The position numbers and the translations under genes are program-made. The notes beneath the pieces are model-generated. The model was not told the DNA's origin. It searched no databases and saw only the letters and a program-made list of their open reading frames with translations. This document shows positions 17,019 through 38,162 of a stretch of 64,000 bases of DNA, piece after piece (position 1 is the stretch's first letter; every line of letters starts with the position of its first letter). Source of the DNA: Dactylorhiza incarnata (taxonomy: Eukaryota > Streptophyta > Magnoliopsida > Asparagales > Orchidaceae). The stretch is taken from positions 124,001 to 188,000 of the forward strand of contig JAWHQI010000258.1 of the NCBI GenBank assembly GCA_033032865.1, given 5' to 3'.

Positions 17019-17046
17019 GGGGGGGGGGGGGGGGGGGGGGGGGGGG
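17019..17046. repeat. 28-nt G homopolymer at left edge of the transposon array
   Basis: An uninterrupted run of 28 G directly abuts the first TTCCACTCTGG terminus. G runs also lie at the junctions between units and at the far right edge (38148-38162). Confidence 0.9.
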
Positions 17047-17104
17047 TTCCACTCTGGTATGAGGGGGAAAAAAGGGGGGAGCCGCCGGGTTCCACTCTGG
17101 TATG
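17047..17104. repeat. Duplicated left terminus of unit A
   Basis: TTCCACTCTGGTATGAGGGG occurs at 17047-17066 and again from 17090. The second copy is preceded by GCCGCCGGG as at the B/C junction, so it is the real start of unit A. The first may be the remnant of a further unit or a local duplication. Confidence 0.75.
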
Positions 17105-17231
17105 AGGGGGAAAAAAGGGGAGAGGGGGGGGGGGAAAGAAAAAGAGGGGGAGGAAAAAAAAGAGGGGGAGGAGAGGGAAAGGGGGAGGGAGGAAGAAAAA
17201 AGAGGGAAATGAAGAAAAAATGAAGGGAGGG
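17105..17231 (+). repeat. Terminal purine tract of unit A, with left GAGGG target duplication
   Basis: About 125 bases of nearly pure G and A on the plus strand. The same tract occurs at the left ends of units B (28370-28509) and C (33279-33415). Its last five bases, GAGGG at 17227-17231, are repeated after the Athila-2 fragment. Confidence 0.8.
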
Positions 17232-18689
17232 TGATAACTTCGCAAAAAGAAGTTACCTTTATCTCTATTTTTATCCTTTTAGTCTCGTTATATGATATTT
17301 TTATATGAAAATTAGTTAAAAATCCAATTGTCGCATGATTTGAAGTCAAAATGGTTGTTACTCTCATTTCTATATCTTTTTATGATAGGATTCGGAGAGA
17401 ATATAAGTCAAGTATTGAAGGCTAAGTATTGTGCAAAATCTGGGAAAAATATTGCAACATGTTCTCAACAAAGCTGGCAGGTCAAATTGTGCAGAAATGC
17501 AGATCCAGAAAAATGTTGCAACATTTTCATAACAAATCTGACGGTTACAGAAATTTAAACCCGAATTTATCAAGTTTTCAACGGTTGCAATCTAGTTTTT
17601 TGGCATCCATTCAGCAATTAATTATGCCAACAAGTGGGGCCCACGCACAGGAGAGAGAGGGCAGTTTCAAAAGAGGATTTTCGGCCATTTGAATCATCTT
17701 CTAGCATTTTTGGCCATTAGAGAGGAGGAGAAAATCTGAGGAGAAATTCTGCCAAGGGAGAAACCAGTCCAGATCTGGCATTTGGGCTGAAGGAAACATT
17801 TCTACGTCGCTGGAGAAGGGAAGATTCGCATTTCTTTCGAAATGTTTAGTAAGATCTCTTCAGTTTTGTGTTATTTTCCCTCAACCATGAACTAAAACTC
17901 TCTAGTCTTGCATGATGAGAGTAGTATGTGTATTTTGATGATGAACATCTTTGATTTCGAATTTGTTTTGTGATTATCTTTATAGATCTTGTGATTTTTA
18001 TGGTGAAATTGTTGGATCTTGTCTTTTTATTATATTGCGTTGCGAGAATCGAGAGATGAGCATCGTAATATTAATTTAAAGGCTAGTTTATCGCAGTGCG
18101 AGAATCGAGAGATGAGCAGTGTGAATCATTAACCAAAATTTCTATATTTTTACCGCGTTTCGAGAATCGAGAGAGGAGAAACGTACGTGTATCACAAGAT
18201 CTCTTTAGTTTCGAAAAGTGAAAGAGATTTCCTTTTCATGCTAGCGAACTTGATTTTTGCACTTCATAATATTTTCGTTTCACCTAAGTTAGAGATAACT
18301 AGGGTTGCGTAGATATTAAGACTCCTTGTATCGAGAGATAAATGTATCTTCTTTTAAAATCATCGCAAGATAATTCAAAACTCAATCGAATGAAATATTT
18401 ATTTTATCATCATCATAGTATACATATGAAATCGGAAATGCAAGACTACTTTCTCTAATTGCTAAAAAGTACTTTAAGATCTAGTTAAATTAGTCTAATA
18501 TTTATCTAAAAGTTTTAATCTATTTTCATAAAATCAACTACACCATTTTGCTTGGATTCATAGAAACGGTGTAGCTAGTAATTGTAAGCACTAAACTAGT
18601 CACTTCTCCGTGGGAACGATCTCACTCACTCTGTATTACTTGTACGACACATATACTTGCGTTTTCAAGCTCGAATTTTGCTCGTATCA
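17232..18689 (+). repeat. LTR of Athila-2 (about 1.46 kb)
   Basis: It starts TGATAACTTC, ends CTCGTATCA and is followed by the primer site. The start can fold (AACTTC with GAAGTT). Three stem-loops with a common loop lie at 18028-18190. It belongs to the same family as the Athila-1 LTR but is clearly diverged from it. Confidence 0.9.
18025..18190 (+). other. Three stem-loops with conserved 16-nt loop in Athila-2 LTR
   Basis: The loop GAGAATCGAGAGAKGA occurs at about 18043, 18100 and 18161. The flanking stems differ: ATATTGCGTTGC/GCATCGTAATAT, TCGCAGTGC/GCAGTGTGA and GCGTTTC/GAAACGT. Several imperfect positions are G-T on the sense strand, and one true mismatch is present in each of the first two. 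Loop sequence and spacing match Athila-1 while the stems do not. Confidence 0.7.
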
Positions 18690-18695
18690 AGTTTT

Positions 18696-18713
18696 TGGCG
18701 CCGTTGCCGGGGA
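18696..18713 (+). other. Primer binding site of Athila-2, tRNA-Asp
   Basis: TGGCGCCGTTGCCGGGGA follows the LTR after AGTTTT, identical in sequence and spacing to Athila-1. Confidence 0.92.
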
Positions 18714-18834
18714 GGTGCAACGGATTTAGTGTTTTTCTTACAATATTAGTGAACCTTAGTACTTGGAGGTCAAGTTTTATCTTCACTTGTTAGTTTATTG
18801 TATTTGTGTTATCATCTTTATTAACTGATAGTGT

Positions 18835-20499
18835 ATGTCCAGGTATCGATCCGTTGAATTAATTCCTCTAAATTCTGAAATCGAACGAACCTGTAGACAA
18901 AATCGAAAGTCAACTAGGCTAGAACAACTTAGTCAACTAGCAATGGATAATCAGCATCAAGACGATGAACCTCACCAGAATGGGCAGGATTTAGGTGGTC
19001 AAGTAGAACAAAATGGACACCCAAATGAACCAAGACGAACTTGCCGGGATTATAATATGCCTTTTAGGGGAGGGGTACAGTTTAGTATTGCTAGACCCGC
19101 GATAGAGGCCAATAACTTTAAGATAGATTCCATGGCAATGCAACTTGTTCAAAACAACAAGTTTGGGGGTCTTAATCATGAAGACCCTAACTCTCACCTT
19201 AGAACTTTCATAGAGATTTGTGACACGTTTAAGGTTAACGGTGCATCTGATGAAGCCATTAAGCTACGCTTAGTTCCTTTCTCTTTAGAAGGGAAAGCTA
19301 AAGACTGGTTGAACTCATTACCTTATGAGTCCATTACTACTTGGGCTATTTTAACCGAAAAATTTTTATCCAAATATTTCCTTCCATCTAAAACTGCTAA
19401 GTTAATGCGAGATATCTCTACATTCATGCAAGTAAATGGAGAAACCTTATATGATGCGTGGGAACGATTTAAGGAATTGTTACGTAGATGTCCCCACCAT
19501 GGGTTAGCCATTCACCAACAAGTATGGACGTTTTATAACGGCCTTCAGACATCTACAATGATCCAAGTAGATGGAGCTGCAGGAGGTTCACTGATGAACA
19601 AGTATCCTGAAGATGCCTACGGTATTTTAGAAGATCTATCTTCTAATAATTATCACACGATTGAACGTCAAGTACATCCTCCCACTACGACAGGATTGTA
19701 CCAAGTTGACCAATTAACGTCATTTGCAGCCCAAATGACGTCCCAATTTAATTCCATTAACAAGAGGTTAGATGCTTTGACGTTGAACCAAAATCAAATG
19801 AATCCTCAAGTTAATAGCATTATTACTCCCATGGTTCCTCCTAACCCCGCCTTAACAATTGAACAACTCGTAGGGGGTAATGAAGAAGTTAATTATTTAG
19901 GAGGGCATTATAAACAAAATACGAACCCTTATCCGAACCACTATAACCCCGAATGGAGAAACCACCCTAATTTCTCTTGGAAGAACAACCCCGGTCCTAC
20001 TCCACCACACTTATTTAATTCTAATGCTAATTCTCATCATCAAAACAATAATTCCAACCAAGCAGGACCATCTAGAAAGGTAACGGACGACTTCATCATA
20101 GAATCAATGCAAAAGAATGAAGCTCGTTTCTCTAGTTTGGAAGGGTCAATGAGAATGATTGAATTGCAATTAGGACAAATTGCCAACGCGTTAAGTATTC
20201 GACCGCAAGGCACACTCCCTGCGGATACCACACCTAATCCCAAAGGAGATAATCATCATTGTAAGGCCGTCACATTACGAAGTGGGCGTGAGTTAATAGT
20301 TGGTCAAGACACTAATCCATATGAACAAAATAAAAGTCAAGACCAAGAAGAGGCCAAGAATCCTAGTGATCAAGTAATAATGGGAAGAGATGAGGGTGAT
20401 AAGAGTGAAGAGGAAGAAGTAATAATAAGAAGAACTGATAAGGACATAGAAAGAGAAAAAGAGGAAAGAAGGAAGGAGAACCCAAGAACTTATCCACCA
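18835..20499 (+). pseudogene. Athila-2 gag, C-terminally cut off
   Basis: The ORF starts MSRYRSVELIPLNSEIERT, homologous to Athila-1 gag, and keeps the gag domain (NKFGGLNHE, PFSLEGKAKDWLNSLP, TTW..L.EKFLSKYF, PHHGLA). It is open for about 555 codons to the truncation at TYPP, where Athila-1 continues with a proline-rich YPPPPFPSR segment. The frame then runs on into the transposon's palindrome array until 20784, giving a meaningless chimeric tail. No stop or frameshift interrupts the gag part, so the fragment is young. Alone it cannot reverse transcribe or integrate. Confidence 0.85.
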
Positions 20500-20543
20500 G
20501 AGGGAGGGAGAACGCGGCCACAATTTGCGAAAGATAGGCATTT

Positions 20544-20770
20544 GGCTCTCCACGGAGATCCAAATGGCTCTCCGCGGAGATCCAAATGGCTCTCCGCGGA
20601 GAGCCAAATGGCTCTCCGCGGATATCTAAATGGATCTCCGCGGAGAACTTTTTGCTCTCCGCGGAGAACTTTTTGCTCTCCGCGGAGAGCCTTCTGGATC
20701 TTCGCGGAGAACCCTTTAGATCTCCGCGGAGAGCCTTTTGGATCTCCGCGGAGAGCCTTCTGTATCTCCA
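20544..20770. repeat. Left palindrome array, unit A
   Basis: About ten copies of a 22-bp unit built around the palindrome GCTCTCCGCGGAGAGC, joined by six-base linkers such as CAAATG, with variants reading GAACTTTTTG. The array is the left subterminal repeat of the transposon. Units B and C have one more copy of the GAACTTTTTG variant. Confidence 0.9.
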
Positions 20771-20886
20771 CTGATTTTATTTAAAGCTATAATTTTGACC
20801 CATTTGAAAACGTTATTCATCCATGAAACAATTGCTATTATAGACAAACATTTCAAATGTACACGAATAATATTTCTTAATTTACA

Positions 20887-23386
20887 TCAATCAACCACAA
20901 AATTTCTAAAGATGTCTGCACAGATCTGGGCTCTAAACATAGGCATATTTTTCTGCCAGTCTACACAACTCTCCCAGCTCATCAGCCCTTCCTTCGCTAT
21001 GTGCTCCATATACTTCATAACGAAGACACCGCAGTCCACGGAGTTCTCCTGCTGTGGTATACCAGCAGTCAAGTCGAGTTTCCAATTGGAAAATCCTGCG
21101 TGGACTTTTTTAACGGTCGCCTTCTGGAGCGCAGAAATCTGCATTAACATAAATTTGTTCGTACATTAGTAACTCGTAATGTACAATACTACATTGCATG
21201 TCAACGAACTGTACTTACAGCTTCTTTAGCGGAAACTTTCCGTTGGGCGTTACGCAGAGAGTCATGTATAAGCCACTTCTTCTCTTTAACCATACCCACC
21301 AATAAATACCAGTGTTGACTATAACATACTGGCATTAGAATCATTTTGATATAGGCGAGATTCTCCTTGGTAATGCCCTCAAGGAATGCAGATACAAGCT
21401 TAGATTCTCCGTCATTGGACCGTGGGAAGTGTAACTACATAATTTGTAACATTTTTTAGCAATGCAAACAGAATTATTAATGTACAAAGCACAGATAGGG
21501 AGATCATACCAAAAAGTTAGGACTGATATACATAAACGGATGATACGCTTCTTTATCCCGATCTCTACGCAAAGTCAAGATCTTTGCGTAGGCATCAATG
21601 TGACAATCTTCAACGTATTTGTCCGTCAGAAGAGCATCCATGCCATCTCGAAATCCGACTATATTCCATTTATTGAATGCTTGGTCGTTCCTGAAACATT
21701 AGAAAGTCATCGTCAATATCAATGTGCATAGATCAAAATTTTGAAAATATAAAAGTGTATAATGTCAAAGGGCACCTCGATGGTATGGAGCTCATACGTC
21801 GATGGATGATATCTCTATCTTCTTCAGCTATTAGCGGTCTCCCCGGATAGTCAACGGGGTAGACATCAAGTTCATCCGCCTTTGTAGTTTTAACGTCTGT
21901 TTCACCTAATGGGGAGTCTCTAATATGAGTAATGGAAGTATCGTGAGGGGTAGTGAGGGTGGTAGCGTTTTGGTGGGTGGGGATCTAGAGATACTCGGGC
22001 TAGATGATGGCGAGGAATGATGAATGAGTGTGTCTATATCGGCACTCATGGAATCAAGACGTTCACCTACACTGTGACTAAAACTAATTAAATCACTATG
22101 TACTCTATCTATTTTTTATCTAATCTATCTACAGAACTATCTATCTTGCTATCTAATAATGCAAATTGATCTAACATCCTATGCTGGAAATCAATCCAAA
22201 ACTGTACAGGAGGGATAGATGGTGTGCTAGGTGGTGGGGGAGGTGATGATGTGCTGGGTGATGGGGGAGGTGATGATGATGAGGGAGGTGGTAATGATGT
22301 GGGAGGTGGTGGTGCAAACTTCATTTTTTTACTACCCTAGATGGCGAGACTATTGGTTTTCTCTTAGATGTGGGAGGTGGTGGTGTCCACTGTGTTGTCA
22401 CGTCTGAACATAACAACTTCTCTGCCGGTGATATTTCATCTAGTACTTCCAAGACCTAAAAAGAAGAAATACAACTATTGTATTGGATAGTTCAAAAGTG
22501 GTTGTTAATCGAATAAACTAAATTATTTACCTGCTCATCCAAGAGTTTTGCAACAGTCCCCATCTCTTTCATTGAAAATGAGACCTTCTCCGACCATCTT
22601 AATATTCGTGGCCTCAATGACAGATAGTGCGGAGCGTAGGTCGTGGTGTGCTCGAGGAACCAAATCTATATCAAACATTGCAATAGTTTAGAACATATTA
22701 AACAAATTTTCATTTTAGGAATTAGAAATATAGATACTTACAACGAGAACATGGGTGCATCCATAGATGTATCTCATTGAAGACTCTGGCCAATGTTGCA
22801 GTTGGCCTTCTTCTGCAACAGGTGGCAACTTCTCCACCATCGACCTGAACGACCTCATAACGAAGGTATAGATCGCTTCTGGACAATTGAACTTTTGAAA
22901 TTTCTCCAAGTTGGAGACCTCCTCGAAGAACATTGGCATCCTCTCCGCGCTCGAGGGGAAGAAGAAATTGCACAGAAGGTGCAAAATCAATATCTTCATC
23001 GTCACAGGGGACGACCCTTTCTCCATCGATTGAAGTTCCGTCTTCAAATCGGACTTCGTTAGCGGTCCAAATGGCTTGGTAGTCAGGGTGACTTCCTCCC
23101 CATGGTTCGGCACACCCAATATCAATGCCACGTCATTGGGGGAGAAGGTTAGCTCCCTCGATCCAATGACGAAGACATCCTTCTCTATATCATACAAGTT
23201 TAGTAGACCGTAAAGAAGGGGAGTGTTCTGCGGTACCTTCGGTGCATGGAAGATATGCCAGATGTTGGCATCCATCAGCATCTTCTTCTGATCCTCCTCC
23301 AATCGTTCTAGTATTGCTGAAGTTAGGCCAACAAATGAGTTTAAATAGCACCTCGAGCTCAAAAAATGGATCTTTTTCTGCCCCAT
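20887..23386 (-). CDS. Ulp1-type cysteine protease gene of the transposon, unit A (6 exons, two frameshifts)
   Basis: Proposed coding exons: 23386-22742, 22665-22531, 22455-21776, 21690-21510, 21434-21219, 21138-20887, all with GT donors and AG acceptors. Exon 1 has an IGSRELTFSPNDVALILGVPN block, resembling the DUF1985/plant-mobile-domain module that precedes Ulp1 in plant transposons. Exon 3 is a proline/serine-rich linker. Exons 5 and 6 hold the C48 peptidase core: His in QHWYLL (about 21312), Asp in HDSL (about 21262), Gln and Cys in PQQENSVDCG (Cys codon 21033-21031). Ulp1-type proteases cleave SUMO conjugates in the nucleus; in a transposon the substrate is unknown. Two one-base homopolymer deletions in exon 3 (near 22325 and 22115) break this copy; each position is in frame in another unit. 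Confidence 0.75.
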
Positions 23387-23390
23387 TTAT

Positions 23391-23904
23391 CTGCAAAATT
23401 TATAAACAGATGTTACAATAGAGGGACAAGAAGAATAAATTGGAGGGAGAAAGAGAGGAAGCAAATGGCTCTCCGAGGAGAGCTACTTGGCTCTCCGCGG
23501 AGAGCCAAACGGCTCTCCGCGGAGAGCTATGTAGCTCTCCGCGGAGAGCCACATGGCTCTCCGCGGAGAGCCACATGGCTCTCCGGGGAGAGCCATTTGG
23601 CTCTCCGGGGAGAACCATTTGGATCTATGTTGAGATCCAATTGGCTCTCCGTGGAGTGCCATTTGGCTCTCCGTTTAGATCCAATTGGCTCTCCATGGAG
23701 AGCCATTTGGCTCTCCGTTTAGATCCAATTGGCTCTCCATGGAGAACCATTTGGCTCTCCGTTTAGATCCAATTGGCTCTCCATGGAGATTCAATTGGGT
23801 AATGGCCTAAATGAGGTACAATTGTATCATGGAATATTAAATGCAAATTATTGTGTTATCTCCAAATCATTTTTTGTACTATAATACATATAAAAAGCAT
23901 ACCT
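23391..23904 (-). other. Predicted intron containing the central array
   Basis: On the minus strand a donor AAAAG/GTATGC sits just after the transposase stop (23916-23914), and a pyrimidine-rich acceptor ending TTTTGCAG lies a few bases before the ATG of the protease gene. These signals bracket the central array. They suggest that the protease exons can be spliced to the transposase transcript, or that an alternative first exon is used. This is inferred from splice signals only. Confidence 0.4.
23467..23790. repeat. Central palindrome array, unit A only
   Basis: About fifteen 22-bp units of the GCTCTCCGCGGAGAGC type, grading into variants with CTCCATGGAG and CTCCGTTTAGATCC. It lies between the 3' end of the transposase gene and the first coding exon of the protease gene. 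Units B and C lost it with their shared deletion. Confidence 0.9.
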
Positions 23905-23913
23905 TTTAGGGTT

Positions 23914-26900
23914 TCACACAGACTGTTGCAAGCTCTTTTTTTTGTTAATATCCTTAACCTTTTGTTTGAGCTGCACATCAGATCTAACCCGAAATTGGTT
24001 CATCCCCAACACCCGTGCGACTCGCCCCCAGTACAAGAAACGCTTGGCTAGGCTCTTCCAAGACATTTGATCACCAGTCGACGATTTCACATGTGAGCGC
24101 TCTGATGGACTAGTTAGCAAGTAATTGAGCAGCTCCTTCTCCGATTGGGAGAACGGCTCTCCTGTAGCTGGGGCGGGGACGATGGCCTCCATTATCTGAT
24201 TGAAAGTCGGCAATTGTTGATTGACCATGAATGGCGGACGGGAACCAATCTCGCTGACAGCGGACGAGATGCCCGCATTAGGTTCCTCCGTCGTCGTGAT
24301 GACTGCAGAAGATGCTGGTTGAGTTGAATTATTTGTGGACGGAGTTTCGGCGGACAATGAATGTATAACAACTGGCGATGGTTGAATGTAGATGGCGTCT
24401 TGATCACCGAGCTCCTTTTGCGCTTCGGTATGCGACGACAAACTGTTTGATGTCCTTTTCCTTTTGAGACGTCTAAGATAATCCCAACGATTTTGAATCT
24501 CCTTGTGGGTCATCTGAACCAAATCCTCACGACGTGCAGCAATGCGGGCGTAAGCTGGGGCGACCACTTTGGTCCAGTGAATGTTGCCGGCATGCCCAGC
24601 ATCAATCTCGTTTTGAACAAGTCGATCAATGATATCGTCCGCTGATCCTTCAATTACTAGATCGGGTGGGGACGATTGCAGATCTGTTGCAAGGGGCTGA
24701 CTTGAACTGTGACTTGGGGCGCCGGTGGTAAAAGTGACGCTTCGAGTTACTGTTGTGGTGACAGTCTCTTCTAACTGGATGAAACTATCATCACGGCCCG
24801 CCTGCGTTAGAGCAATCAATGACGCGGCTAGATTTAGTGCAGTAATGATGCTGCGTTTGGGCACTGCTCGTTGAATGGGCAATCTGAAACGAGACTGAGC
24901 AACCATATCCTCCAAGTGCTGTTTAAGAACCTGTTCTGATTTTGGCCGAATGAACCGTTTGAAAGCGTAATTGGTGCTATGTAAAGCCGAGACAAGAACA
25001 GACCAAATTCGATGCAATTGTGGAATATGCAAGGATTCAATGGGAAAATCTTTCAGATCAAGCAGTTCATCGGGTTGAAGAAATTTGAGAGCCACCATTC
25101 TGAGTAAGCGCCGTTCGAAGGGGTTGATCATTGGTGAAGTGCTCATCACTTTTTCCCAGAGATTAAGGCCTTCTAATGCCGATTGACGTTCATTGCCCAA
25201 TGCGTTGAGGCTGCGAGATTTTTTATGGTGATTTGATGAAGAGCTTTGCCCATGCGATGTTGGTCCGGGTTTTCTGCGCTTGCGACTGGACTGAATAGAA
25301 TGGGGCGTGTTGCTTATATCGATGACTTCGGTCTGGTTCAGATCAGTATGGTTTTGCGGTAGTGCTTCGTCTTCTCCAACGCAGTGATGATCATCGTTCG
25401 GAGTCCTCTCCACAGCAGTTGCGGCAACCTCAAGTGCATCATTCACAATCGCATCGAACGCGTGGCTCGACCAAATTGCATTATCAGCTATTGATTCGGC
25501 AATCATTCCAACGGATTCTAGCTGCCCTGCTGGAATTTCTGGAAGTTGAGGAAGGGATTGTCCAAATGCCGCCGTTAATCCAAACTCGTCGTCGCAATCC
25601 TCAATCGAGAGAGGCAACATATGAAACATTGTCGACAGAGACGTTTGTGAGGGAGTTATGCCATCGGTCGAAAGAGCTGCGAGATATTGAGTGAGAATGA
25701 TATGCATACCCGAGATTGGCAAATATGCCCAGCGATGATCAAATTGGAGTTCGCCTCGAAAGTTGATTTGAGCGACCACGGCATGGAGCAGCAAGATCCC
25801 TCCATCCAGGGACATAGTCTCCGGGAAAATGGCTCGTCCTTGACGCCATAAGTTTTCGTTCTTCCCCGATCCACGGCGTAGAGTCGAACGAAAGAAGCGA
25901 TCCACGACGGTGTTTGACGCCCCTACAGGCGGTGTTAAGCAATTTCTGATGTGCTTTTTCTGCGTCTCGTGGCAAGATAGAAGTTTGGTCGTCACAATGC
26001 GCTTCGATGGTGGCACATCATTCTCGTTTTTCCAGTTTTTAATTCGATCCAACAATGCATCAAGTTCAGCCTCAATGATGGAGCCTTCCCGCATTGAAGC
26101 ATGTCCATTGCCAACAATGATTTCGGCCACGCCAGCCATAAATAGTTCCTGCCGAGCTCGATCCGTGCCGTTCGAATTGTCCCTATACCTTGTGATCAGG
26201 TGATGATTGTCTAGGGGAACAATGATGTTGTCGAAATCTTGTAGCCATTCTCGGTCATCGCAGCACTTGTCAAGGTAGTACATGATGAGCAGAGAAGTAT
26301 CAATATTGTAAGCATTGTACCGGTTCTGCAAACTCCGACCAACAAATCGACGCTCTGCATTGCCCGTAGTCGATGTGAATTGATGGGAGAGAATTTGTTG
26401 GCGCTCGTTCATGACAGAGTGCAATCCTTCAACAGGGGAAAATTTCCTGCCATTGAACTCGTCCGTCAATTTCATGCGTCCCGGCACGTTGTGATGATGG
26501 TCAGCTGAGAGATGAGTCCCAGTTATGGCGCCTTCCATTCGGTTGAAGAACGAAAGTTGGCGAGCAATGCAGTCATTGATTAGGCGTGATAGCGTTGATT
26601 CCACTGGACCAAGAGTGCCATTGTACCCGTTACAATGCTGAAAAAATGATGGGAAATCAGGGAACACTGCCGGATCCTTCTGCCATGACGTTTGCCCAAG
26701 TGCTGCATCCCATAAGCACATATCCAAATACCACGACACGTGACCACGATATAGTGCGGCTTGACGCATGTATCGAGTCGTTTGGGCACAACGAATCACC
26801 TTGGCTGCATCAGCAATGCCGGAACGGGATGTGTACAAGTCGTATGCCATTTGAACAAGACCGACGTCGTGTGCGCTCTGTTCGAAAAGCTGCACAGGAT

Positions 26901-27530: not shown

Positions 27531-27708
27531 CCAAAGCCAAAATTTAGATTAGTAGCCATAATACTAGGATCCGATTTTGAGTAACTATAATTGGTTATAG
27601 TAGCTTGCCTAGTAAAATTCCTACCTCACCTTCCAAATTATATGCTAATTATAATTTATTTCCAAGGATTGTCAAAAAAGAATGAACAAACCTTGAGATC
27701 CAATTTTG

Positions 27709-27976: not shown

Positions 27977-28019
27977 TCTTTGGCTTCGAACATGATAATG
28001 GCGGAAACTAGATACATAC

Positions 28020-28250
28020 CTTGCGGAGAGGATGGGTAGGCTGCGCCGGAGAGCTCTTGTGTAGACTGAATCGGGTTGGAGAAGGAGCGCCGGAGAGCTG
28101 TGTGATTACTGCCGGAGACGATGGGGGAGGCTTCGCCGGAATCAAACGTTCTAGGGTTTGATTGCGAGAGAGCGAGGAGAAATCGCGAGGAAGCTGTGCG
28201 AGGAGAGCGAGGAGAGCTGAGTACGGAGAGGAGAAATGAAGAGGCGCGGG
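28020..28250 (-). promoter_or_regulatory. Predicted 5' leader exon and promoter region of transposase A
   Basis: On the minus strand the segment is CT-rich, contains AAACCCTAGAAC (a telo-box-like AAACCCTA at about 28152-28159) and ends with a strong donor CGCAAG/GTATGT at 28020/28019. There is no ATG in it. This looks like a non-coding first exon whose intron holds the right array. Units B (32938 on) and C (37830 on) keep the same structure. Confidence 0.45.
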
Positions 28251-28320
28251 ATTGAAGAGGCGCGGATTCGTGTTTTCTTATGTTGCGCTGAATAAAATAA
28301 TATTATTCAGTCGGATTCAG

Positions 28321-28349
28321 TCTACCAGAGTGAGGCCCGACCGGGGGGG
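28321..28349. repeat. Right terminus of unit A and A/B junction
   Basis: CTACCAGAGTGAGGCCCGACC then seven G (28343-28349), immediately followed by the left terminus of unit B. There is no spacer or other target sequence between units. Confidence 0.85.
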
Positions 28350-28540
28350 CGCCGGGTTCCACTCTGGTATGAGGGGGAAAAAGGGGGGAGGGGGGGTGGA
28401 GAAAAAAGAAAAAGAGGGGGAGGAGAAAAAAGAGGGGGAGGAGAGGGAAAGGGGGAGGGAGGAAGAAAAAAGAGGGAAAGGAAGAAAAAATGAGGGAGGG
28501 AGGGAGAACGCGGCCACAATTTGCGAAAGATAGACATTTG

Positions 28541-28790
28541 GTTCTCCGCGGAGATCCAAATGGCTCTCCGCGGAGATCCAAATGGCACTCCGCGGAGAGC
28601 CAAATGGCTCTCCGCGGATATCTAAATGGATCTCCGCGGAGAACTTTTTGCTCTCCGCGGAGAACTTTTTGCTCTCCGCGGAGAACTTTTTGCTCTCCGC
28701 GGAGAGCCTTCTGGATCTCCGCGGAGAACCCTTTAGATCTCCGCGGAGAGCCTTTTGGATCTCCGCGGAGAGCCTTCTGTATCTCCACTG
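28541..28790. repeat. Left palindrome array, unit B
   Basis: About eleven 22-bp units of the GCTCTCCGCGGAGAGC family, with three consecutive GAACTTTTTG variants where unit A has two. Unit C shares that extra copy. Confidence 0.9.
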
Positions 28791-28903
28791 ATTTCATTTA
28801 AAGCTATAATTTTGACCCATTTGAAAACGTTATTCATCCATGAAACAATTGCTATTATAGACAAACATTTCAAATGTACACGAATAATGTTTCTTAATTT
28901 ACA

Positions 28904-31200
28904 TCAATCAACCACAAAATTTCTAAAGATGTCTGCACAGATCTGGGCTCTAAACATAGACATATTTTTCTCCCAGTCTACGCAACTCTCCCAGCTCATC
29001 AGCCCTTCCTTCGCTATGTGCTCCATATACTTCATAACGAAGACACCGCAGTACACGGAGTTCTCCTGCTGTGGTATACCAGCAGTCAAGTCGAGTTTCC
29101 AATTGGAAACTCCTGCGTGGACTTTTTTACGGTCGCTTTCTGGAGCGCAGAAATCTGCATTAACACAAATTTGTTCGTACATGAGTAACTCGTAATGTAC
29201 AATACTATATTGCATGTCAACGAACTGTACTTACAGCTTCTTTAGCGGAAACTTTCCGTTGGGCGTTACGCAGAGAGTCATGTATAAGCCACTTCTTCTC
29301 TTTAACCATACCCACCAATAAATACCAGTGTTGACTATAACATACTGGCATTAGAATCATTTTGATATAAGCGAGATTCTCCTTGGTAATGCCCTCAAGG
29401 AATGCAGATACAAGCTTAGATTCTCCGTCATTGGACCGTGGGAAGTGCAACTACATAATTTGTAACATTTTTTAGCAATGCAAACAGAATTATTAATGTA
29501 CAAAGCACATATAGGGCCGGAGATCATACCAAAACGTTAGGACTGATATACATAAACAGATGATACGCTTCTTTATCCCGATCTCTACGCAAAGTCAAGA
29601 TCTTTGCGTAGGCATCAATGGGACAATCTTCAGCGTATTTGTCCGTCAGAAGAGCATCCATGCCATCTCGAAATCCGACTATATTCCATTTATTGAATGC
29701 TTGGTCGTTCCTGAAACATTAGAAAGTCATCGTCAATATCAATGTGCATAGATCAAAATTTTGAAAATATAAAAGTGTATAATGTCAAAAGGGCACCTCG
29801 ATGGTATGCCGCTCATACGTCGATGGATGATATCTCTATCTTCTTCAGCTATTAGCGGTCTCCCCGGATAGTCAACGGGGTAGACATCAAGTTCATCCGC
29901 CTTTGTAGTTTTAATGTCTCTTTCTCCTAATGGGGAGTCTCTAATATGAGTAATGGAAGTATCGTGAGGGGTAGTGAGGGTGGTAGCGTTTTGGTGGGTG
30001 GGGGATCTAGAGATACTCGGGCTAGATGATGGCGAGGAATGATGAATGAGTGTGTCTATATCGGCACTCATGGAATCAAGACGTTCACCTACATTATGAC
30101 TAAAACTAATTAAATCACTATGTACTCTATCTATTTTTTTGTCTAATCTATCTACAGAACTATCTATCTTGCTATCTAATAATGCAAATTGATCTAACAT
30201 CCAATGCTGGAAATCAATCCAAAACTGTACAGGAGGGATAGATGGTGTGCTAGGTGGTGGGGGAGGTGATGATGTGCTGGGTGATGGGGGAGGTGATGAT
30301 GATGAGGGAGGTGGTAATGATGTGGGAGGTGGTGGTGCAAACTCCATTTTTTTACTACCCTAGATGGCGAGACTATTGGTTTTCTCTTAGATGTGGGAGG
30401 TGGTGGTGTCCACTGTGTTGTCACGTCTGAACATAACAACTTCTCTGCCGGTGATATTTCATCTAGTACTTCCAACACCTAAAAAGAAGAAATACAACTA
30501 TTGTATTGGATAGTTCAAAAGTGGTTGTTAATCGAATAAACTAAATTATTTACCTGCTCATCCAAGAGTTTTGCAACAGTCCCCATCTCTTTCATTGAAA
30601 ATGAGACCTTCTCAGACCATCTTAATATTCATGGCCTCAATGACGGATAGTGCAGAGTGATGCTGGTGGTGTGCTCGAGGAACCAAATCTATATCAAACA
30701 TTGCAATAGTTTGGAACATATGAAACAAATTTCATTTTAGGAATTAGAAATATAGATACTTACAACGAGAACATGGGTGCATCCATAGATGTATCCCATT
30801 GAAGACTCTGGCCAATGTTGCAGTTGGCCTTCTTCTGCAACAGGTGGTAGCTTCTCCACCATCGACCTGAACGACCTCATAACGAAAGTATAGATCGCTT
30901 CTGGCCAATTGAACTTTTGAAATTTCTCCAAGCTGGAGACCTCCTCAAAGAACATTGGCATCCTCTCCGCGCTCGAGGGGAAGAAGAAATTGCACAGAAG
31001 GTGCAAAATCAATATCTTCATCGTCACAGGGGACAACCCTTTCTCCATCGATTGAAGTTCCGTCTTCAAATCGGACTTCGTTAGCGGTCCAAATGGCTTG
31101 GTAGTCAGGGTGACTTCCTCCCCATGGTTCGGCACACCCAATATCAATGCCACGTCATTGGGGGAGAAGGTTAGCTCCCTCGATCCAATGATGAAGACAT
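28904..31200 (-). pseudogene. Ulp1-type protease remnant, unit B
   Basis: The exon series of unit A is present except the first part of exon 1, lost in the internal deletion. Exon 3 is open across 30347-29739, where unit A has a frameshift, but carries the seven-A slip further upstream. The last exon has a one-base deletion (near 29128) and the Asp before the catalytic Cys is Tyr (VYCG, 29053-29051). The copy is therefore non-functional. His and Asp of the catalytic set remain. Confidence 0.75.
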
Positions 31201-31206
31201 CCTTCT

Positions 31207-32448
31207 CTACATGATGAGCAGAGAAGTATCAATATTGTAAGCATTATACCGGTTCTGCAAACTCCGACCAACAAATCGACGCTCTGCATTTCCCGTAATC
31301 GATGTGAATTGATGGGAGAGAATTTGTTGGCGCTCGTTCATGACGGAGTGCAATCCTTCAACGGGGGAAAATTTCCTGCCATTGAACTCGTCCGTCAATT
31401 TCATGCGTCCCGGCACGTTGTGATGATGGTCAGCCGAGAGATGAGTCCCGGTTATGGCACCTTCCATTCGGTTGAAGAACGAAAGTTGGCGAGCAATGCA
31501 GTCATTGATTAGGCATGATAGCGTTGATTCCACTGGACCAAGAGTGACATTGTACCCGTTACAATGCTGAAAAAATGATGGGAAATCAGGGAACACTGCC
31601 GGATCCTTCTGCCATGACGTTTGCCCAAGTGCTGCATCCCATAAGCGCATATCCAAATACCACGACACGTGACCACGATATAGTGCGGCTTGACGCATGT
31701 ATCGAGTCGTTCGGGCACAACGAATCACCTTGGCTGCATCAACAATGTCGGAACGGGACGTGTACAAGTCGTATGCCATTTGAACAAGACCGACGTCGTG
31801 TGCGCTCTGTTCGAAAAGCTGCACAGGATAGTTAAGGATGATGGGTGCCGGGATCAACTTCTCGTTTTAGGCCTCGTCGATGACATGGAACGTGGCACCA
31901 CAGCCGCCGGAGGTGTTCAACTTTTTGCACATGTATCTAGCACTGATAGAGAATGCAGTGGTGTCGATGCAATCGACAACTCGCGGGGCACTTAATTGTT
32001 TGCGGGAAAGAAAGCCGACTTTGTTGCAAGATGGGCATGCACCCGCTGTCACATTGACGCCATACTGCCATTCCGGATCGATCACGAACAACGGTTTAAA
32101 AAGATACGCATTCAGGTCAGGTCGCTTGTTCCACAGTGGCACGGGCGGATCGATTCGAATGGGATGACGAATGCCATCCTCCATCATTTTCACTTGGATC
32201 TTGATCCAATCCTCCTGAATTTTGTTCAACGTGCCTGATTGCTTCCCACAAATGCACGGCTCAGTAGTGGGGCGGTCGAAGGCTGACGAATAGAATGGAG
32301 GCGTTTGCGTCGGAATCGATTCGGGTAGAATTTCAGGGCAACGATGAACGAGGGTCTCTACTGATCGTTGTGTTTTTGCAATGTCCCGCATCACAATGTC
32401 AATACCATTCATTGCCGATAAAGACAAATAGTCAAATAATCTAGTCAC
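31207..32448 (-). pseudogene. Transposase remnant, unit B
   Basis: It starts MTRLFDYLS at 32448, reads through the zinc-binding block, then hits a TAA at 31869-31867 (GCC-TAA where A and C read GCC-AAA). The same frame continues to 31207, where the deletion junction creates a stop. Only the N-terminal module and the first candidate catalytic Asp survive. Confidence 0.8.
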
Positions 32449-32630
32449 CCAAACCCAAAATTTAGATTAGTAGCCATAATACTAATTAAGATCCTATTTT
32501 GAGTAACTATAATTGGTTATAGTAGCTTGCCTAGTAAAATTCTTACCTCACCTTCCAAATTATATGCTAATTATAATTTATTTCCAAGGATTGTCAAAGA
32601 AGAATGAACAAACCTTGAGATCCAATTTTG

Positions 32631-32890
32631 GGCTCTCCGCGGAGAGCAAACTGAGATCCAATTTTGGGCTCTCCGCGGAGAGCAAACGGCTCTCCGCGGA
32701 GAGCCAAACCGCTCTCCGCGGAGACCCAAACGGCTTTACGGCTCTCCGCGGTGAGCAATTCTGCTCTCCTCGGAGAGCCAGTGGATCTCAGCGGAAAGCC
32801 ATGTGGATCTCCGCAGAGAGCCAGTGGCTCTCCTAGGAGAGCCGAATGGCTCTCCGGGGAGAGTCGTTTAGCTCTACGCGGAGAGCCATT
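32631..32890. repeat. Right palindrome array, unit B
   Basis: Palindromic units as in unit A but with fewer perfect copies and irregular spacing after the first repeat pair. Confidence 0.88.
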
Positions 32891-33226
32891 CTTTGGCTTC
32901 GAACATGATAATGGCGGAAACTAGATACATACCTTGTGGAGAGGATGGGTAGGCTGCGCCGGAGAGCTCTTGTGTAGACTGAATCGGGTTGGAGAAGGAG
33001 CGCCGGAGAGCTGTGTGATTACTGCCGGAGACGATGGGGGAGGCTGCGCCAGAATCAAACGTTCTAGGGTTTGATTGCGAGAGAGCGAGGAGAAATCACG
33101 AGGAAGCTGTGCGAGGCGAGCTGAGTACGGAGAGGAGAAATGAAGAGGCGCGGGATTGAAGAGGCGCGGATTCGTGTTTTCTTATGTTGCGCTGAATAAA
33201 ATAATATTATTCAGTCGGATTCAGTC

Positions 33227-33253
33227 TACCAGAGTGAGGCCCGATCGGGGGGG
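33227..33253. repeat. Right terminus of unit B and B/C junction
   Basis: CTACCAGAGTGAGGCCCGATC followed by seven G (33247-33253) and CCGCCGGGTTCCACTCTGG, the left end of unit C. Confidence 0.85.
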
Positions 33254-33445
33254 CCGCCGGGTTCCACTCTGGTATGAGGGGGAAAAAAGGGGGGAGGGGG
33301 GTGGAGAAAAAAGAAAAAGAGGGGGAGGAGAAAAAAGAGGGGGAGGAGAGGGAAAGGGGGAGGGAGGAAGAAAAAAGAGGGAAAGGAAGAAAAAATGAAG
33401 GGAGGGAGGGAGAACGCGGCCACAATTTGCGAAAGATAGGCATTT

Positions 33446-33695
33446 GGTTCTCCGCGGAGATCCACATGGCTCTCCGCGGAGATCCAAATGGCACTCCGCG
33501 GAGAGCCAAATGGCTCTCCGCGGATATCTAAATGGATCTCCGCGGAGAACTTTTTGCTCTCCGCGGAGAACTTTTTGCTCTCCGCGGAGAACTTTTTGCT
33601 CTCCGCGGAGAGCCTTCTGGATCTCCGCGGAGAACCCTTTAGATCTCCGCGGAGAGCCTTTTGGATCTCCGCTGAGAGCCTTCTGTATCTCCACT
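33446..33695. repeat. Left palindrome array, unit C
   Basis: About eleven 22-bp units as in unit B; the final copy reads CTCCGCTGAG instead of CTCCGCGGAG. Confidence 0.9.
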
Positions 33696-33809
33696 GATTT
33701 CATTTAAAGCTATAATTTTGACCCATTTGAAAACGTTATTCATCCATGAAATAATTGCTATTATAGACAAACATTTCAAATGTACACGAATAATGTTTCT
33801 TAATTTACA

Positions 33810-36100
33810 TCAATCAACCACAAAATTTCTAAAGATGTCTGCACAGATCTGGGCTCTAAACATAGGCATATTTTTCTGCCAGTCTACGCAACTCTCCCAG
33901 CTCATCAGCCCTTCCTTCGCTATGTGCTCCATATACTTCATAACGAAGACACCGCAGTCCACGGAGTTCTCCTGCTGTGGTATACCAGCAGTCAAGTCGA
34001 GTTTCTAATTGGAAAATCCTGCGTGAACTTTTTTACGGTCGCCTTCTGGAGCGCAGAAATCTGCATTAACACAAATTTGTTCGTACATTAGTAACTCGTA
34101 ATGTACAATACTACATTGCATGTCAACGAACTGTACTTACAGCTTCTTTAGCGGAAACTTTCCGTTGGGCGTTACACAGAGAGTCATGTATAAGCCACTT
34201 CTTCTATTTAACCATACCCACCAATAAATACCAGTGTTGACTATAACATACTGGCATTAGAATCATTTTGATATAAGCGAGATTCTCCTTGGTAATGCCC
34301 TCAAGGAATGCAGATACAAGCTTAGATTCTCCGTCATTGGACCGTGGGAAGTGCAACTACATAATTTGTAACATTTTTTAGCAATGCAAACAGAATTATT
34401 AATGTACAAAGCACAGATAGGGAGATCATACCAAAAAGTTAGGACTGATATACATAAACGGATGATACGCTTCTTTATCCCGATCTCTTCGCAAAGTCAA
34501 GATCTTTGCGTAGGCATCAATGTGACAATCTTCAACGTATTTGTCCGTCAGAAGAGCATCCATGCCATCTCGAAATCCGACTATATTCCATTTATTGAAT
34601 GCTTGGTCGTTCCTGAAACATTAGAAAGCCATCGTCAATATCAATGTGCATAGATCAAAATTTTGAAAATATAAAAGTGTATAATGTCAAAAGGGCACCT
34701 CGATGGTATGGCGCTCATACGTCGATGGATGATATCTCTATCTTCTTCAGCTATTAGCGGTCTCCCCGGATAGTCAACGGGGTACACATCAAGTTCATCC
34801 GCCTTTGTAGTTTTAATGTCTCTTTCTCCTAATGGGGAGTCTCTAATATGAGTAATGGAAGTATCGTGAGGGGTAGTGAGGGTGGTAGCGTTTTGGTGGG
34901 TGGGGGATCTAGAGATACTCGGGCTAGATGATGGCGAGGAATGATGAATGAGTGTGTCTATATCGGCACTCATGGAATCAAGACGTTCACCTACACTATA
35001 ACTAAAACTAATTAAATCACTATGTACTCTATCTATTTTTTTTGTCTAATATATCTACAGAACTATCTATCTTGCTATCTAATAATGCAAATTGATCTAA
35101 CATCCAATGCTGGAAATCAATCCAAAATTGTACAGGAGGGATAGATGGTGTGCTAGGTGGTGGGGGAGGTGATGATGTGCTGGGTGATGGGGGAGGTGAT
35201 GATGATGAGGGAGGTGGTAATGATGTGGGAGGTGGTGGTGCAAACTTCATTTTTTTTACTACCATAGATGGCGAGACTATTGGTTTTCTCTTAGATGTGG
35301 GAGGTGGTGGTGTCCACTGTGTTGTCACGTCTGAACATAACAACTTCTCTGCCGGAGATATTTCATCTAGTACTTCCAACACCTAAAAAGAAGAAATACA
35401 ACTATTGTATTGGATAGTTCAAAAGTGGTTGTTAATCGAATAAACTAAATTATTTACCTGCTCATCCAAGAGTTTTGCAACAATCCTCATCTCTTTCATT
35501 GAAAATGAGACCTTCTCAGACCATCTTAATATTCGTGGCCTCAATGACGGATAGTGCGGAGCGATGCTGGTGGTGTGCTCGAGGAACCAAATCTATATCA
35601 AACATTGCAATAGTTTAGAACATATGAAACAAATTTCATTTTAGGAATTAGAAATATAGATACTTACAACGAGAACATGGGTGCATCCATAGATGTATCC
35701 CATTGAAGACTCTGGCCAATGTTGCAGTTGGCCTTCTTCTGCAACAGGTGGCAGCTTCTCCACCATCGACCTGAACGACCTCATAACGAAGGTATAGATC
35801 GCTTCTGGCCAATTGAACTTTTGAAATTTCTCCAAGCTGGAGACCTCCTCGAAGAACATTGACATCCTCTCCGCGCTCGAGGGGAAGAAGAAATTGCACA
35901 GAAGGTGCAAAATCAATATCTTCATCGTCACAGGGGACGACCCTTTCTCCATCGATTGAAGTTCCGTCTTCAAATCGGACTTCGTTAGCGGTCCAAATGG
36001 CTTGGTAGTCAGGGTGACTTCCTCCCCATGGTTCGACACACCCAATATCAATGCCACGTCATTGGGGGAGAAGGTTAGCTCCCTCGATCCAATGACGAAG
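33810..36100 (-). pseudogene. Ulp1-type protease remnant, unit C
   Basis: Exon 1 is truncated at the deletion junction. Exon 3 reads through the eight-A site in frame (35382-35029) but has an extra base a little later. The last exon retains VDCG with the catalytic Cys, after the same one-base deletion as unit B. It is not functional as it stands. Confidence 0.75.
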
Positions 36101-36110
36101 ACATCCTTCT

Positions 36111-37352
36111 CTACATGATGAGCAGAGAAGTATCAATATTGTAAGCATTGTACCGGTTCTGCAAACTCCGACCAACAAATCGACGCTCTGCATTGCCCGT
36201 AGTCGATGTGAATTGATGGGAGAGAATTTGTTGGCGCTCGTTCATGACGGAGTGCAATCCTTCAACGGGGGAAAATTTCCTGCCATTGAACTCGTCCGTC
36301 AATTTCATGCGTCCCGGCACGTTGTGATGATGGTCAGCCGAGAGATGAGTCCCGGTTAAGGCGCCTTCCATTCGGTTGAAGAACGAAAGTTGGCGAGCAA
36401 TGCAGTCATTGATTAGGCATGATAGCGTTGATTCCACTGGACCAAGAGTGACATTGTACCCGTTACAATGCTGAAAAAATGATGGGAAATCAGGGAACAC
36501 TGCCGGATCCTTCTGCCATGACGTTTGCCCAAGTGCTGCATCCCATAAGCGCATATCCAAATACCACGACACGTGACCACAATATAGTGCGGCTTGACGC
36601 ATGTATCGAGTCGTTCGGGCACAACGAATCACCTTGGCTGCATCAACAATGCCAGAACGAGACGTGTACAAGTCGTATGCCATTTGAACAAGACCGACGT
36701 CGTGTGCGCTCTGTTCGAAAAGCTGCACAGGATAGTTAAGGATGATGGGTGCCGGGATCAACTTCTCGTTTTTGGCCTCGTCCATGACATGGAACGTGGC
36801 ACCACAGCTGCCGGAGGTGTTCGACTTCTTGCACATGTATCTAGCACTGATAGAGAATGCAGTGGTGTCGATGCAATCGACAACTCGCGGGGCACTTAAT
36901 TGTTTGCGGGAAAGAAAGCCGACTTTGTTGCAAGATGGGCATGCACCCGCTGTCACATTGACGCCGTACTGCCGTTCCGGATCGATCACGAACAACGGTT
37001 TCAAAAGATACGCATTCAGGTCAGGTCGCTTGTTCCACAGTGGCACGGGCGGATCGATTCGAATGGGATGGCGAATGCCATCCTCCATCATTTTCACTTG
37101 GATCTTGATCCAATCCTCCTGAATTTTGTTCAACGTGCCTGATTGCTTCCCACAAATGCACGACTCAGTAGTGGGGCGGTCGAAGGCTGACGAATAGAAT
37201 GGAGGCGTTTGCGTCGAAATCGATTCGGGTAGAATTTCAGGGCAGCGATGAACGAGGGTCTCTACTGATCGTTGTGTTTTCGCAATGTCCCGCAGCACAA
37301 TGTCAATACCATTCATTGCCGATAAAGACAAATAGTCAAATAATCTAGTCAC
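36111..37352 (-). CDS. Truncated transposase, unit C (413 residues, open)
   Basis: An uninterrupted ORF from MTRLFDYLS to a TAG created at the deletion junction (36113-36111). It contains the N-terminal region, the CXXC...C...C zinc module (ACPSCNK, MCKKSNTSGSCG) and the first candidate catalytic Asp in SADHHHN, but lacks the second Asp, the Glu and the Myb-like tail. It is the best guide to the N-terminus that is garbled in unit A. If expressed it could act as a DNA-binding or dominant-negative fragment; that is speculation. Confidence 0.75.
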   Translation of the reverse strand: MTRLFDYLSLSAMNGIDIVLRDIAKTQRSVETLVHRCPEILPESISTQTPPFYSSAFDRPTTESCICGKQSGTLNKIQEDWIKIQVKMMEDGIRHPIRIDPPVPLWNKRPDLNAYLLKPLFVIDPERQYGVNVTAGACPSCNKVGFLSRKQLSAPRVVDCIDTTAFSISARYMCKKSNTSGSCGATFHVMDEAKNEKLIPAPIILNYPVQLFEQSAHDVGLVQMAYDLYTSRSGIVDAAKVIRCARTTRYMRQAALYCGHVSWYLDMRLWDAALGQTSWQKDPAVFPDFPSFFQHCNGYNVTLGPVESTLSCLINDCIARQLSFFNRMEGALTGTHLSADHHHNVPGRMKLTDEFNGRKFSPVEGLHSVMNERQQILSHQFTSTTGNAERRFVGRSLQNRYNAYNIDTSLLIM

Positions 37353-37530
37353 CCAAACCCAAAATTTAGATTAGTAGCCATAATACTAGGATCCTATTTT
37401 GAGTAACTATAATTGGTTATAGTAGCTTGCCTAGTAAAATTCCTACCTCACCTTCCAAATTATATGCTAATTATAATTTATTTCCAAGGATTGTCAAAGA
37501 AGAATGAACAAACCTTGAGATCCAATTTTG

Positions 37531-37790
37531 GGCTCTCCGCGGAGAGCCAAACGGCTCTCCGCGGAGAGCCAAACCGCGGAGAGCCAAACCGCTCTCCGCG
37601 GAGAGCCAAACCGCTCTCCGCGGAGAGCCAAACGACTCTCCGGCTCTCCGCGGTGAGCAATTCTGCTCTCCTCGGAGAGCCAGTGGATCTCAGCGGAAAG
37701 CCATGTGGATCTTCGCAGAGAGCCAGTGGCTCTCCTAGGAGAGCCGAATGGCTCTCCGGGGAGAGTCGTTTAGCTCTACGCGGAGAGCCA
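37531..37790. repeat. Right palindrome array, unit C
   Basis: 22-bp palindromic units as in A and B, with one unit truncated (AAACCGCGGAGAGCC near 37572). Confidence 0.88.
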
Positions 37791-38125
37791 TTCTTTGGCT
37801 TCGAACATGATAATGACGGAAACTAGATACATACCTTGCGGAGAGGATGGGTAGGCTGCGCCGGAGAGCTCTTGTGTAGACTGAATCGGGTTGGAGAAGG
37901 AGCGCCAGAGAGCTATGTGATTACTGCCGGAGACGATGGGGGAGGCTGCGCCAGAATCAAACGTTCTAGGGTTTGATTGCGAGAGAGCGAGGAGAAATCG
38001 CGAGGAAGCTGTGCGAGGAGAGCGGGGAGAGCTGAGTACGGAGAGGAGAAATGAAGAGGCGCGGGATTGAAGAGGCGCGGATTCGTGTTTTCTTATGTTG
38101 CGCTGAATAAAATAATATTATTCAG

Positions 38126-38162
38126 TCTACCAGAGTGAGGCCCGACCGGGGGGGGGGGGGGG
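38126..38162. repeat. Right terminus of unit C and flanking 15-G run
   Basis: Same terminus as units A and B followed by G15, then unrelated DNA (TGATTAAGG). Because the flank is a homopolymer, a target duplication cannot be delimited. Confidence 0.8.

What the first reader, a model, noticed from the sequence alone, without database searches (positions are those of the whole stretch)
17047..38162. Unclassified DNA transposon with a transposase gene, a Ulp1 protease gene and three palindrome arrays, in a three-unit tandem array
Directly seen: three head-to-tail units with matching ends (inverted core CACTCTGGTA, 14 of 18 positions alike), a conserved minus-strand gene pair and 22-bp palindrome arrays. 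Known: Ulp1-type proteases ride in several plant transposons (for example Kaonashi-type MULEs and some CACTA elements). But the large protein here does not show MULE, CACTA, hAT, Harbinger or Helitron signatures, and the ends are not those of these groups. Inference: a plant lineage of a little-known DDE superfamily, or a new one.
Basis: partly seen in the sequence, partly recalled or inferred. Interest (0 to 1): 0.92.

Follow-up and report, generated by a model that had tools for sequence, protein, structure and literature searches.

The report
Orchid transposon that targets poly-G tracts
A recently active jumping gene of a plant (probably an orchid) was found almost only inside runs of the DNA letter G and always in the same direction, which can explain why copies pile up head to tail and would make it one of very few DNA transposons known to choose a fixed target.

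Summary
Only unit 1 keeps both genes; units 2 and 3 share a 3.1-kb deletion, and unit 1 is split by a 3.3-kb gag fragment. The plant genome holds 245 exact right ends; full copies are about 8 kb, and 21 of them differ by a median 1.6% in a star-like way, so recent. New here: the element lies in runs of G. Of sampled ends, 34 of 35 left and 73 of 74 right have a G-run of 5 or more just outside, none a C-run (background 0.8%), so orientation is fixed. Seven empty minisatellite units beside one copy show that the G-run was there before. The probable duplication is G6-7, not proven. Each insertion would then recreate its target at both borders, which suits head-to-tail arrays. The transposase-like protein has invariant D, D, DxxH and E and an N-terminal DUF6729-like finger domain. 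The closest described system is the target-specific Dada superfamily, but the C-terminal CCHC finger is absent, the target differs, and no Dada sequence could be aligned. I call it a Dada-like, poly-G-targeting lineage and leave a new superfamily open.

The parts
17082..28342 (-). Unit 1: the only unit with both genes; about 8.0 kb of element plus a 3.27-kb foreign fragment; ends CCGCCGGGTTCCACTCTGGTA ... TACCAGAGTGAGGCCCGACC
28350..33246 (-). Unit 2: internally deleted copy (4.9 kb)
33254..38147 (-). Unit 3: internally deleted copy (4.9 kb), same deletion junction as unit 2
28343..28349 (+). G7 between units 1 and 2: probable target-site duplication or target remnant; the last G may be the variable first base (G or C) of unit 2
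33247..33253 (+). G7 between units 2 and 3
   Evidence: left flank of unit 3; the same junction, with the GATC variant, is at locus L107
38148..38162 (+). G15 outside the right end of unit 3
17019..17046 (+). G28 outside a 35-bp stub of another left end (17047-17081)
23914..27494 (-). Gene 1, putative DDE transposase; single large frame 27342-23914, with the likely start MNGID at about 27494 in another frame (break in the G-tract 27232-27251)
20887..23386 (-). Gene 2: first exon weakly like the plant mobile domain (PF10536, E 0.012, below cut-off), proline-rich middle, three Ulp1/C48 exons at its 3' end with His, Asp and Cys (QHWYLL / HDSL / VDCGVF); exon borders judged by eye
20541..20757 (.). 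Left palindrome array, 22-bp period
23462..23789 (.). Middle palindrome array, between gene 1 and gene 2
27710..27977 (.). Right palindrome array, upstream of gene 1
17232..20499 (+). Foreign fragment with a Ty3/gypsy-type gag frame, inside unit 1 (observed only)

Best explanation
This is a DNA transposon family, with internally deleted derivatives, that inserts into poly-G tracts in one fixed orientation. Shown: copies, ends, G-run flanks, fixed orientation, a G-run already present in empty neighbour units at two sites, gene content. Inferred: the gene 1 protein is a cut-and-paste DDE transposase (D, D, E with DxxH) that binds the ends and the palindrome arrays, recognises about 6-7 or more Gs, cuts with a 6-7-nt stagger and so duplicates G6-7. 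Because the duplicate equals the target, every insertion leaves a fresh target at both borders, and the fixed orientation makes neighbouring insertions head to tail. The Ulp1 protein probably removes SUMO from the transposase or from host silencing proteins. The whole works like the target-specific Dada transposons, with a homopolymer in place of an RNA gene.
For: 245 exact right ends in the genome, reversed control 0; 40 of 496 first-look candidates scored, all 97-100% identical to a 1.5-kb piece of gene 1; 21 copies with median divergence 1.6%, 254 of 290 variable columns singletons (copies taken from the best matches). Ends: 34 of 35 left and 73 of 74 right ends have a G-run of 5 or more within 14 bp, 0 C-runs; background 0.8%. 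Empty sites: L027 lies in a minisatellite with seven empty units in the fetched flanks, each reading ccagcatc (one ccaacatc), a G-run, then agtacaagg (one actacaagg): six plain runs of 6, 17, 18, 19, 28 and 31 Gs and one of 52 letters with three Ts; the filled unit reads ccagcatc-G17-[element]-G16-agtacaagg. L028: 17 neighbouring G-runs of 5 (5), 6 (9) or 7 (3), filled site G6 and G7. Commonest right G-run is exactly 7 (12 of 74), and 7 is also commonest on the left (7 of 35). D, D, DxxH and E invariant in distant relatives. Arrays conserved. C48 protease.
Against: The duplication length is not fixed: L021 and L024, with interrupted runs, overlap by 9 and 10 bp, and L013 fits neither length. 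The mode at 7 may in part mean only that runs of 7 or more are unstable: a G-tract inside gene 1 also has 7 as its commonest length and a tail to 30. Both structure models are poor (mean pLDDT 44 and 52) and no fold match is significant. No open frame in 21 copies reaches the about 1190 residues expected from the window (longest frame per copy 352-1142). L010 has no G-run at its left end, and L068 has another left end in place of the G-run. Long G-runs may be partly sequencing or assembly effects. The locus L107 shares the unit 2/unit 3 junction, so at least that junction was copied as a piece. Excision was not tested, so cut-and-paste is assumed.
Confidence: 0.76

Rival explanations
1. The three-unit array arose by local duplication (unequal crossing-over or segmental copying) and not by three insertions into the same G-run.
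For: Units 2 and 3 share one deletion junction whose exact 26 bases occur only 3 times in the genome; the third place, on contig C1712, also carries the same right-end variant GATC-G7-CCGCC and a unit 99.6% like unit 3 over 273 bp. Units 2 and 3 are slightly closer to each other (97.3%) than unit 1 is to either (95.0-97.1%).
Against: The 2.7% difference between units 2 and 3 is not that of a recent duplication, and is larger than the median 1.6% between 21 dispersed copies (different stretches). Other head-to-tail neighbours exist at unrelated places: L057 (G5 between) and L068, and a different family abuts L026 across G5.
Confidence: 0.4
2. The G-runs belong to the element: it carries or adds poly-G at its ends and has no target preference.
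For: G7 is the commonest length on both sides, as would be expected of a fixed terminal sequence.
Against: At L027 seven empty minisatellite units already hold the G-run between the same outer borders; 17 L028 neighbours hold G5-7. Interrupted runs such as gggcgggggg and gagggggag (L024, L021) look like local DNA. A G-run inside gene 1, not involved in insertion, shows a spread from 6 to 30, so length variation needs no terminal addition.
Confidence: 0.08
3. It is an aberrant member of a common plant superfamily (Kaonashi-type MULE or CACTA) that acquired Ulp1 and lost recognisable domains.
For: Ulp1 genes ride in plant MULEs and CACTA elements (recalled, and said in the finding; papers only listed); the C/DxxH motif is also found in MuDR, hAT, Kolobok and P (passage of PMC10045372).
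Against: No MULE, hAT, CACTA, Harbinger or KDZ model is among the nine Pfam families that any of 10 family members hit at E up to 10, within HMMER's filters; the inverted match is a 10-bp core near the ends, not a long TIR; the ends are not CACTA..TAGTG.
Confidence: 0.15
4. The poly-G association is an assembly or basecalling artefact of a homopolymer-rich genome.
For: Runs of up to 45 Gs at a left end and the variable internal tract suggest length errors or instability.
Against: Presence, as opposed to length, is near-universal, strand-specific and about 100 times above background; the smallest sites have only 6-7 Gs.
Confidence: 0.04

Closest known systems
Dada superfamily (Kojima and Jurka 2013, PMC3706591; parts 1-3 of 4 of the text read)
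   Same: DDE with DxxH after the second D; N-terminal Cys4-type finger with similar spacing; strict target and fixed direction; short inverted repeats inside the ends; internally deleted derivatives; tandem copies separated by the duplication; 4.7-11 kb; duplication of 6-7 bp compatible
   Different: Target is poly-G, not snRNA or tRNA genes; no C-terminal CCHC finger; carries an Ulp1 gene and palindrome arrays; host is a flowering plant (the paper's Table 1 lists only Chlorella among green lineages; but a passage of PMC6337768, says that some spinach elements were classified as Dada, without details)
DUF6729 (PF20499)
   Same: N-terminal domain of relative P0005 passes the Pfam cut-off (35.6 against 27 bits); the unit 3 frame (22.6 bits, E 9e-05) and the unit 1 protein (19.5 bits, E 0.00079) match below it
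   Different: Function undescribed in Pfam's name; no paper with this name in the library
Kaonashi-type MULEs with Ulp1 genes (recalled; listing only)
   Same: Plant transposon with an Ulp1 protease gene
   Different: No MULE domain found, no long TIRs, other target
IS256-type transposases (ISCth4)
   Different: Not significant, tied with unrelated chains; prokaryotic

Membership tests
Dada | DDE triad with DxxH after the second D | tested here: met
   D281, D358, DNHH 378-381, E496 in the 1142-residue frame; conserved in each of the 9 other family proteins at the sites it covers (P0002 starts after the first D; P0009 lacks the rest). Motif only; catalysis untested
Dada | N-terminal CCCC zinc finger | tested here: met
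   P0005 C123, C126, C158, C161; window protein has CSSC, then two further C at the matching place; by spacing only. Dada-U6_DR: C389, C394, C429, C432
Dada | C-terminal CCHC zinc finger in all members | tested here: not met
   No cysteine in the last 350 residues of the window protein
Dada | Target-specific insertion in one direction | tested here: met
   73 of 74 right and 34 of 35 left ends next to G-runs, 0 C-runs
Dada | Target is a snRNA or tRNA gene | tested here: not met
   Flanks are poly-G; RNA genes in the flanks were not searched for
Dada | TSD of 6-7 bp | tested here: inconclusive
   L011, L014, L061/L062 allow at most 7; L028 implies 6-8 from its neighbours; L021 and L024 suggest 9-10
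Dada | No TIR, short subterminal inverted repeats | tested here: met
   CACTCTGGTA about 10-11 bp inside both ends; outer 10 bp only partly alike
Dada | Sequence homology to Dada transposases | not testable with these tools
MULE/MuDR | MULE transposase domain | tested here: not met
   No Pfam hit among 10 members at E up to 10; HMMER filters drop weak matches
MULE/MuDR | Long TIRs and about 9-bp TSD (recalled) | tested here: inconclusive
   No long TIR at the ends; TSD length open
CACTA/EnSpm | CACTA-type termini, 3-bp TSD, Tnp domain | tested here: not met
   Termini SCGCCGGG..GACC, no Pfam hit; TSD open
KDZ/Zisupton | KDZ transposase domain, 8-bp TSD (passage of PMC12730594) | tested here: not met
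   No Pfam hit; TSD open
Ulp1/C48 proteases (gene 2 only) | C48 domain with His-Asp-Cys | tested here: met
Plant mobile domain (gene 2 first exon) | PF10536 above cut-off | tested here: not met
   15.3 bits against 34.9

The most novel reading that the evidence does not exclude
A new superfamily of eukaryotic DDE transposons, found so far in orchids and in unnamed environmental sequences, whose transposase reads a strand-specific homopolymer (about 6-7 Gs or more, perhaps as a G-quadruplex or A-form tract) and regenerates its own target at each insertion, so that arrays grow head to tail.
Probability: 0.35. Interest if true: 0.88.

Novelty: new variant of a known kind. Interest (0 to 1): 0.74.

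Why it matters
[quoted passage not shown] A second case, with a homopolymer as target and hundreds of copies, would let target choice be tested directly in a plant. A target that is regenerated by its own duplication is a simple rule for how transposon arrays form. Poly-G can form unusual DNA structures, so the transposase may be a natural reader of such sites and a possible tool. It would also tie the undescribed DUF6729 domain to transposases.

Tried and rejected
Structure route: two AlphaFold jobs gave poor models. Not used as proof. Pfam and PDB sequence searches: DUF6729 alone recurs; no transposase. Viral and prokaryote genome collections: pattern matches (20, 66 and 17 stretches) but no relative confirmed by tblastn. 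A 9-bp duplication (MULE-like) was considered because L021 fits it, but L011, L014 and L061/L062 allow at most 7. Literature: searches for poly-G target preference found nothing (0 papers; 176 papers with 3 of 4 terms, 15 listed, none of these with the homopolymer term); DUF6729: 0 papers; PMD with transposon and Ulp1: 0 papers. This covers open-licence PMC only. Not obtained: genome-wide counts of right ends with exactly G7, of head-to-tail and of tail-to-tail junctions, because the genome search did not complete.
Full report
What is there. The window is part of a 3.27-Gb genome (G000:C1756:124001-188000). The gene 1 protein is 77% identical to a protein of the orchid Platanthera zijinensis over 94% of its length, so the host is probably an orchid; that is an inference. 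Three direct units lie at 17082-28342, 28350-33246 and 33254-38147. Unit 1 is a full element of about 8.0 kb, split by a 3.27-kb fragment with a Ty3/gypsy-type gag frame (17232-20499). Units 2 and 3 lack the stretch that corresponds to 23194-26278. A 35-bp stub of a further left end lies at 17047-17081.

Genes. Gene 1 runs leftward from about 27494 to 23914. Its main frame of 1142 residues is open, but the likely start lies in another frame because of a G-tract at 27232-27251. The tract was found in 19 of 20 further copies: 17 have plain runs of 6 to 30 Gs and two are interrupted and short; units 2 and 3 are interrupted too. In 21 copies the longest open frame is 352 to 1142 residues, short of the about 1190 expected from the window; slippage, or reading errors in the run, may be part of the cause. 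Gene 2 runs from 23386 to 20887 in several exons, judged by eye. Its last three exons encode an Ulp1-type C48 protease (E 5.6e-20; SENP1, 2, 3, 5 and 7 among the PDB hits) with His, Asp and Cys in place. Its first exon resembles the plant mobile domain weakly, below the cut-off.

Palindrome arrays. Near-palindromes of the type TCTCCNNGGAGA repeat every 22 bp in three arrays: at the left end, between the genes and upstream of gene 1. In 19 of 20 fetched copies all three arrays are at the same relative places; units 2 and 3 have two. I infer binding sites for the transposase, at the ends and at both promoters.

Copies and age. A 1.5-kb piece of gene 1 finds 40 scored copies of 496 candidates at 97-100%. 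The exact 21-base right end occurs 245 times, with 0 for the reversed control. In 21 copies, median pairwise divergence over 2.2 kb is 1.6% and 254 of 290 variable columns are singletons: a star-like, recent burst. These 21 were chosen among the best matches, so the figure favours young copies.

The target. I oriented the copies and read the DNA outside each end found. Of 35 left ends, 34 have a run of 5 or more Gs within 14 bp; of 34 right ends, all 34 do; no end has a C-run; the same test on the window outside the array gives 0.8%. A further 40 right ends, in list order from the 245, gave 39 with a G-run and none with a C-run; the exception, L068, runs directly into another left end. Together: 73 of 74 right ends. 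The one left exception is L010. So the element sits in G-runs, with the G on one fixed strand relative to the element.

The run was there before. L027 lies in a minisatellite. In its fetched flanks seven empty units read ccagcatc, G-run, agtacaagg (with one base changed in two of them); six have plain runs of 6, 17, 18, 19, 28 and 31 Gs and one has 52 letters with three Ts. The filled unit reads ccagcatc-G17-element-G16-agtacaagg. L028 lies in another minisatellite: 17 neighbouring runs hold 5 (5 runs), 6 (9) or 7 (3) Gs, and the filled unit has G6 and G7 on its two sides. The duplication at L028 is thus 6 to 8 bp, 7 with the commonest neighbour. At L011, L014 and L061/L062 non-G bases directly outside G7 on both sides limit it to 7, if the first base of the element is the variable G or C and, in L062, if one extra C is passed over. 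The commonest run length is 7 on both sides (7 of 35 left; 12 of 74 right), although the tract inside gene 1, which takes no part in insertion, also has 7 as its commonest length. Against a 7-bp duplication stand L021 and L024, interrupted runs that overlap by 9 and 10 bp, and L013, which fits neither. I take G6-7 as most likely, not as shown.

The array. With a homopolymer duplication equal to the target, both borders of a new copy are again targets, and the fixed orientation makes neighbours head to tail. In the window the units are separated by G7, of which the last G before unit 2 may be that unit's first base. Other head-to-tail neighbours are L057 with G5 and L068 with none; no tail-to-tail pair was seen in the first 58 bp beyond 74 right ends. 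L026 abuts a different family with the same core, TACCAGAGTG, across G5. Copying also took part: the exact deletion junction of units 2 and 3 occurs at 3 places only, and the third, on contig C1712, repeats the unit 2/unit 3 border with its GATC variant and a unit 99.6% like unit 3 over 273 bp before the match ends.

What the protein is. Relatives: three Platanthera proteins and six environmental ones over two searches, and none beyond them with P0005 as the query. In each member, at the sites it covers, D, D, DxxH and E are present, with spacings of 74-77, 20-22 and 116-118. P0005 passes Pfam's cut-off for DUF6729 over a Cys4-type N-terminal domain. No known transposase domain matches. The better-predicted part of the second model has D165 at the end of one strand and the DxxH at the end of the next, as expected of an RNase H fold (recalled), but the models are poor and fold searches gave no significant match. 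The DDE assignment is therefore an inference from motifs and context.

Closest known. Dada transposons (PMC3706591, text parts 1-3 of 4 read) have a DDE core with DxxH, an N-terminal CCCC finger, 6-7-bp duplications, strict targets, fixed direction, short inverted repeats inside the ends in place of TIRs, tandem copies separated by the duplication, and internally deleted derivatives. All of these are met or compatible here. Two features are not met: the C-terminal CCHC finger (no cysteine in the last 350 residues) and the RNA-gene target. Dada transposase genes mostly have introns, whereas gene 1 reads as one long frame. Sequence homology could not be tested. So it works like Dada, but I do not file it as Dada. 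[quoted passage not shown] A passage of PMC6337768 mentions Dada-classified elements in spinach, so Dada in a flowering plant would not be new in itself.

Verdict. The added finding, a transposon that lies in a G homopolymer in one orientation, is the more surprising part, and I found no description of it in the searches made.

Noticed in passing
window 27232-27251 and the matching place in 19 of L009-L028: A G-tract inside gene 1 varies from 6 to 30 Gs between copies, or is interrupted and short; it suggests that runs of 7 or more Gs expand quickly in this genome, or are misread.
   Followed up: partly
L026, about 35 bp outside the left end: Right end of a different family (CATACCAGAGTGAGGGGCGACC) directly abuts this element across G5: a second family with the same core and target.
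   Followed up: no
L107 (C1712:2764980-2765480) and L112: A second locus carries the same unit 2/unit 3 border variant and a unit 99.6% like unit 3 over 273 bp, after which the match ends.
   Followed up: partly
window 44714-44931: Another array of G+C-rich near-palindromes (GGGGTGCGG...CCGCACCCC), period 27 or 55. Similar words stand just outside the G-run of L072 and L085, so such arrays may be targets.
   Followed up: no
window 39483-39520 and 53119-53158: Long C-runs (38 and 40) that I saw no element next to: possible unused targets on the other strand.
   Followed up: no
window 9273-13265: Long open frame of a Ty1/copia retrotransposon polyprotein.
   Followed up: no
P0002, P0003, P0005, P0009 and window protein, C-terminal part: One or two W...QLKNR/QLKQK stretches that look Myb/SANT-like by eye; possible DNA-binding part in place of the CCHC finger.
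   Followed up: no
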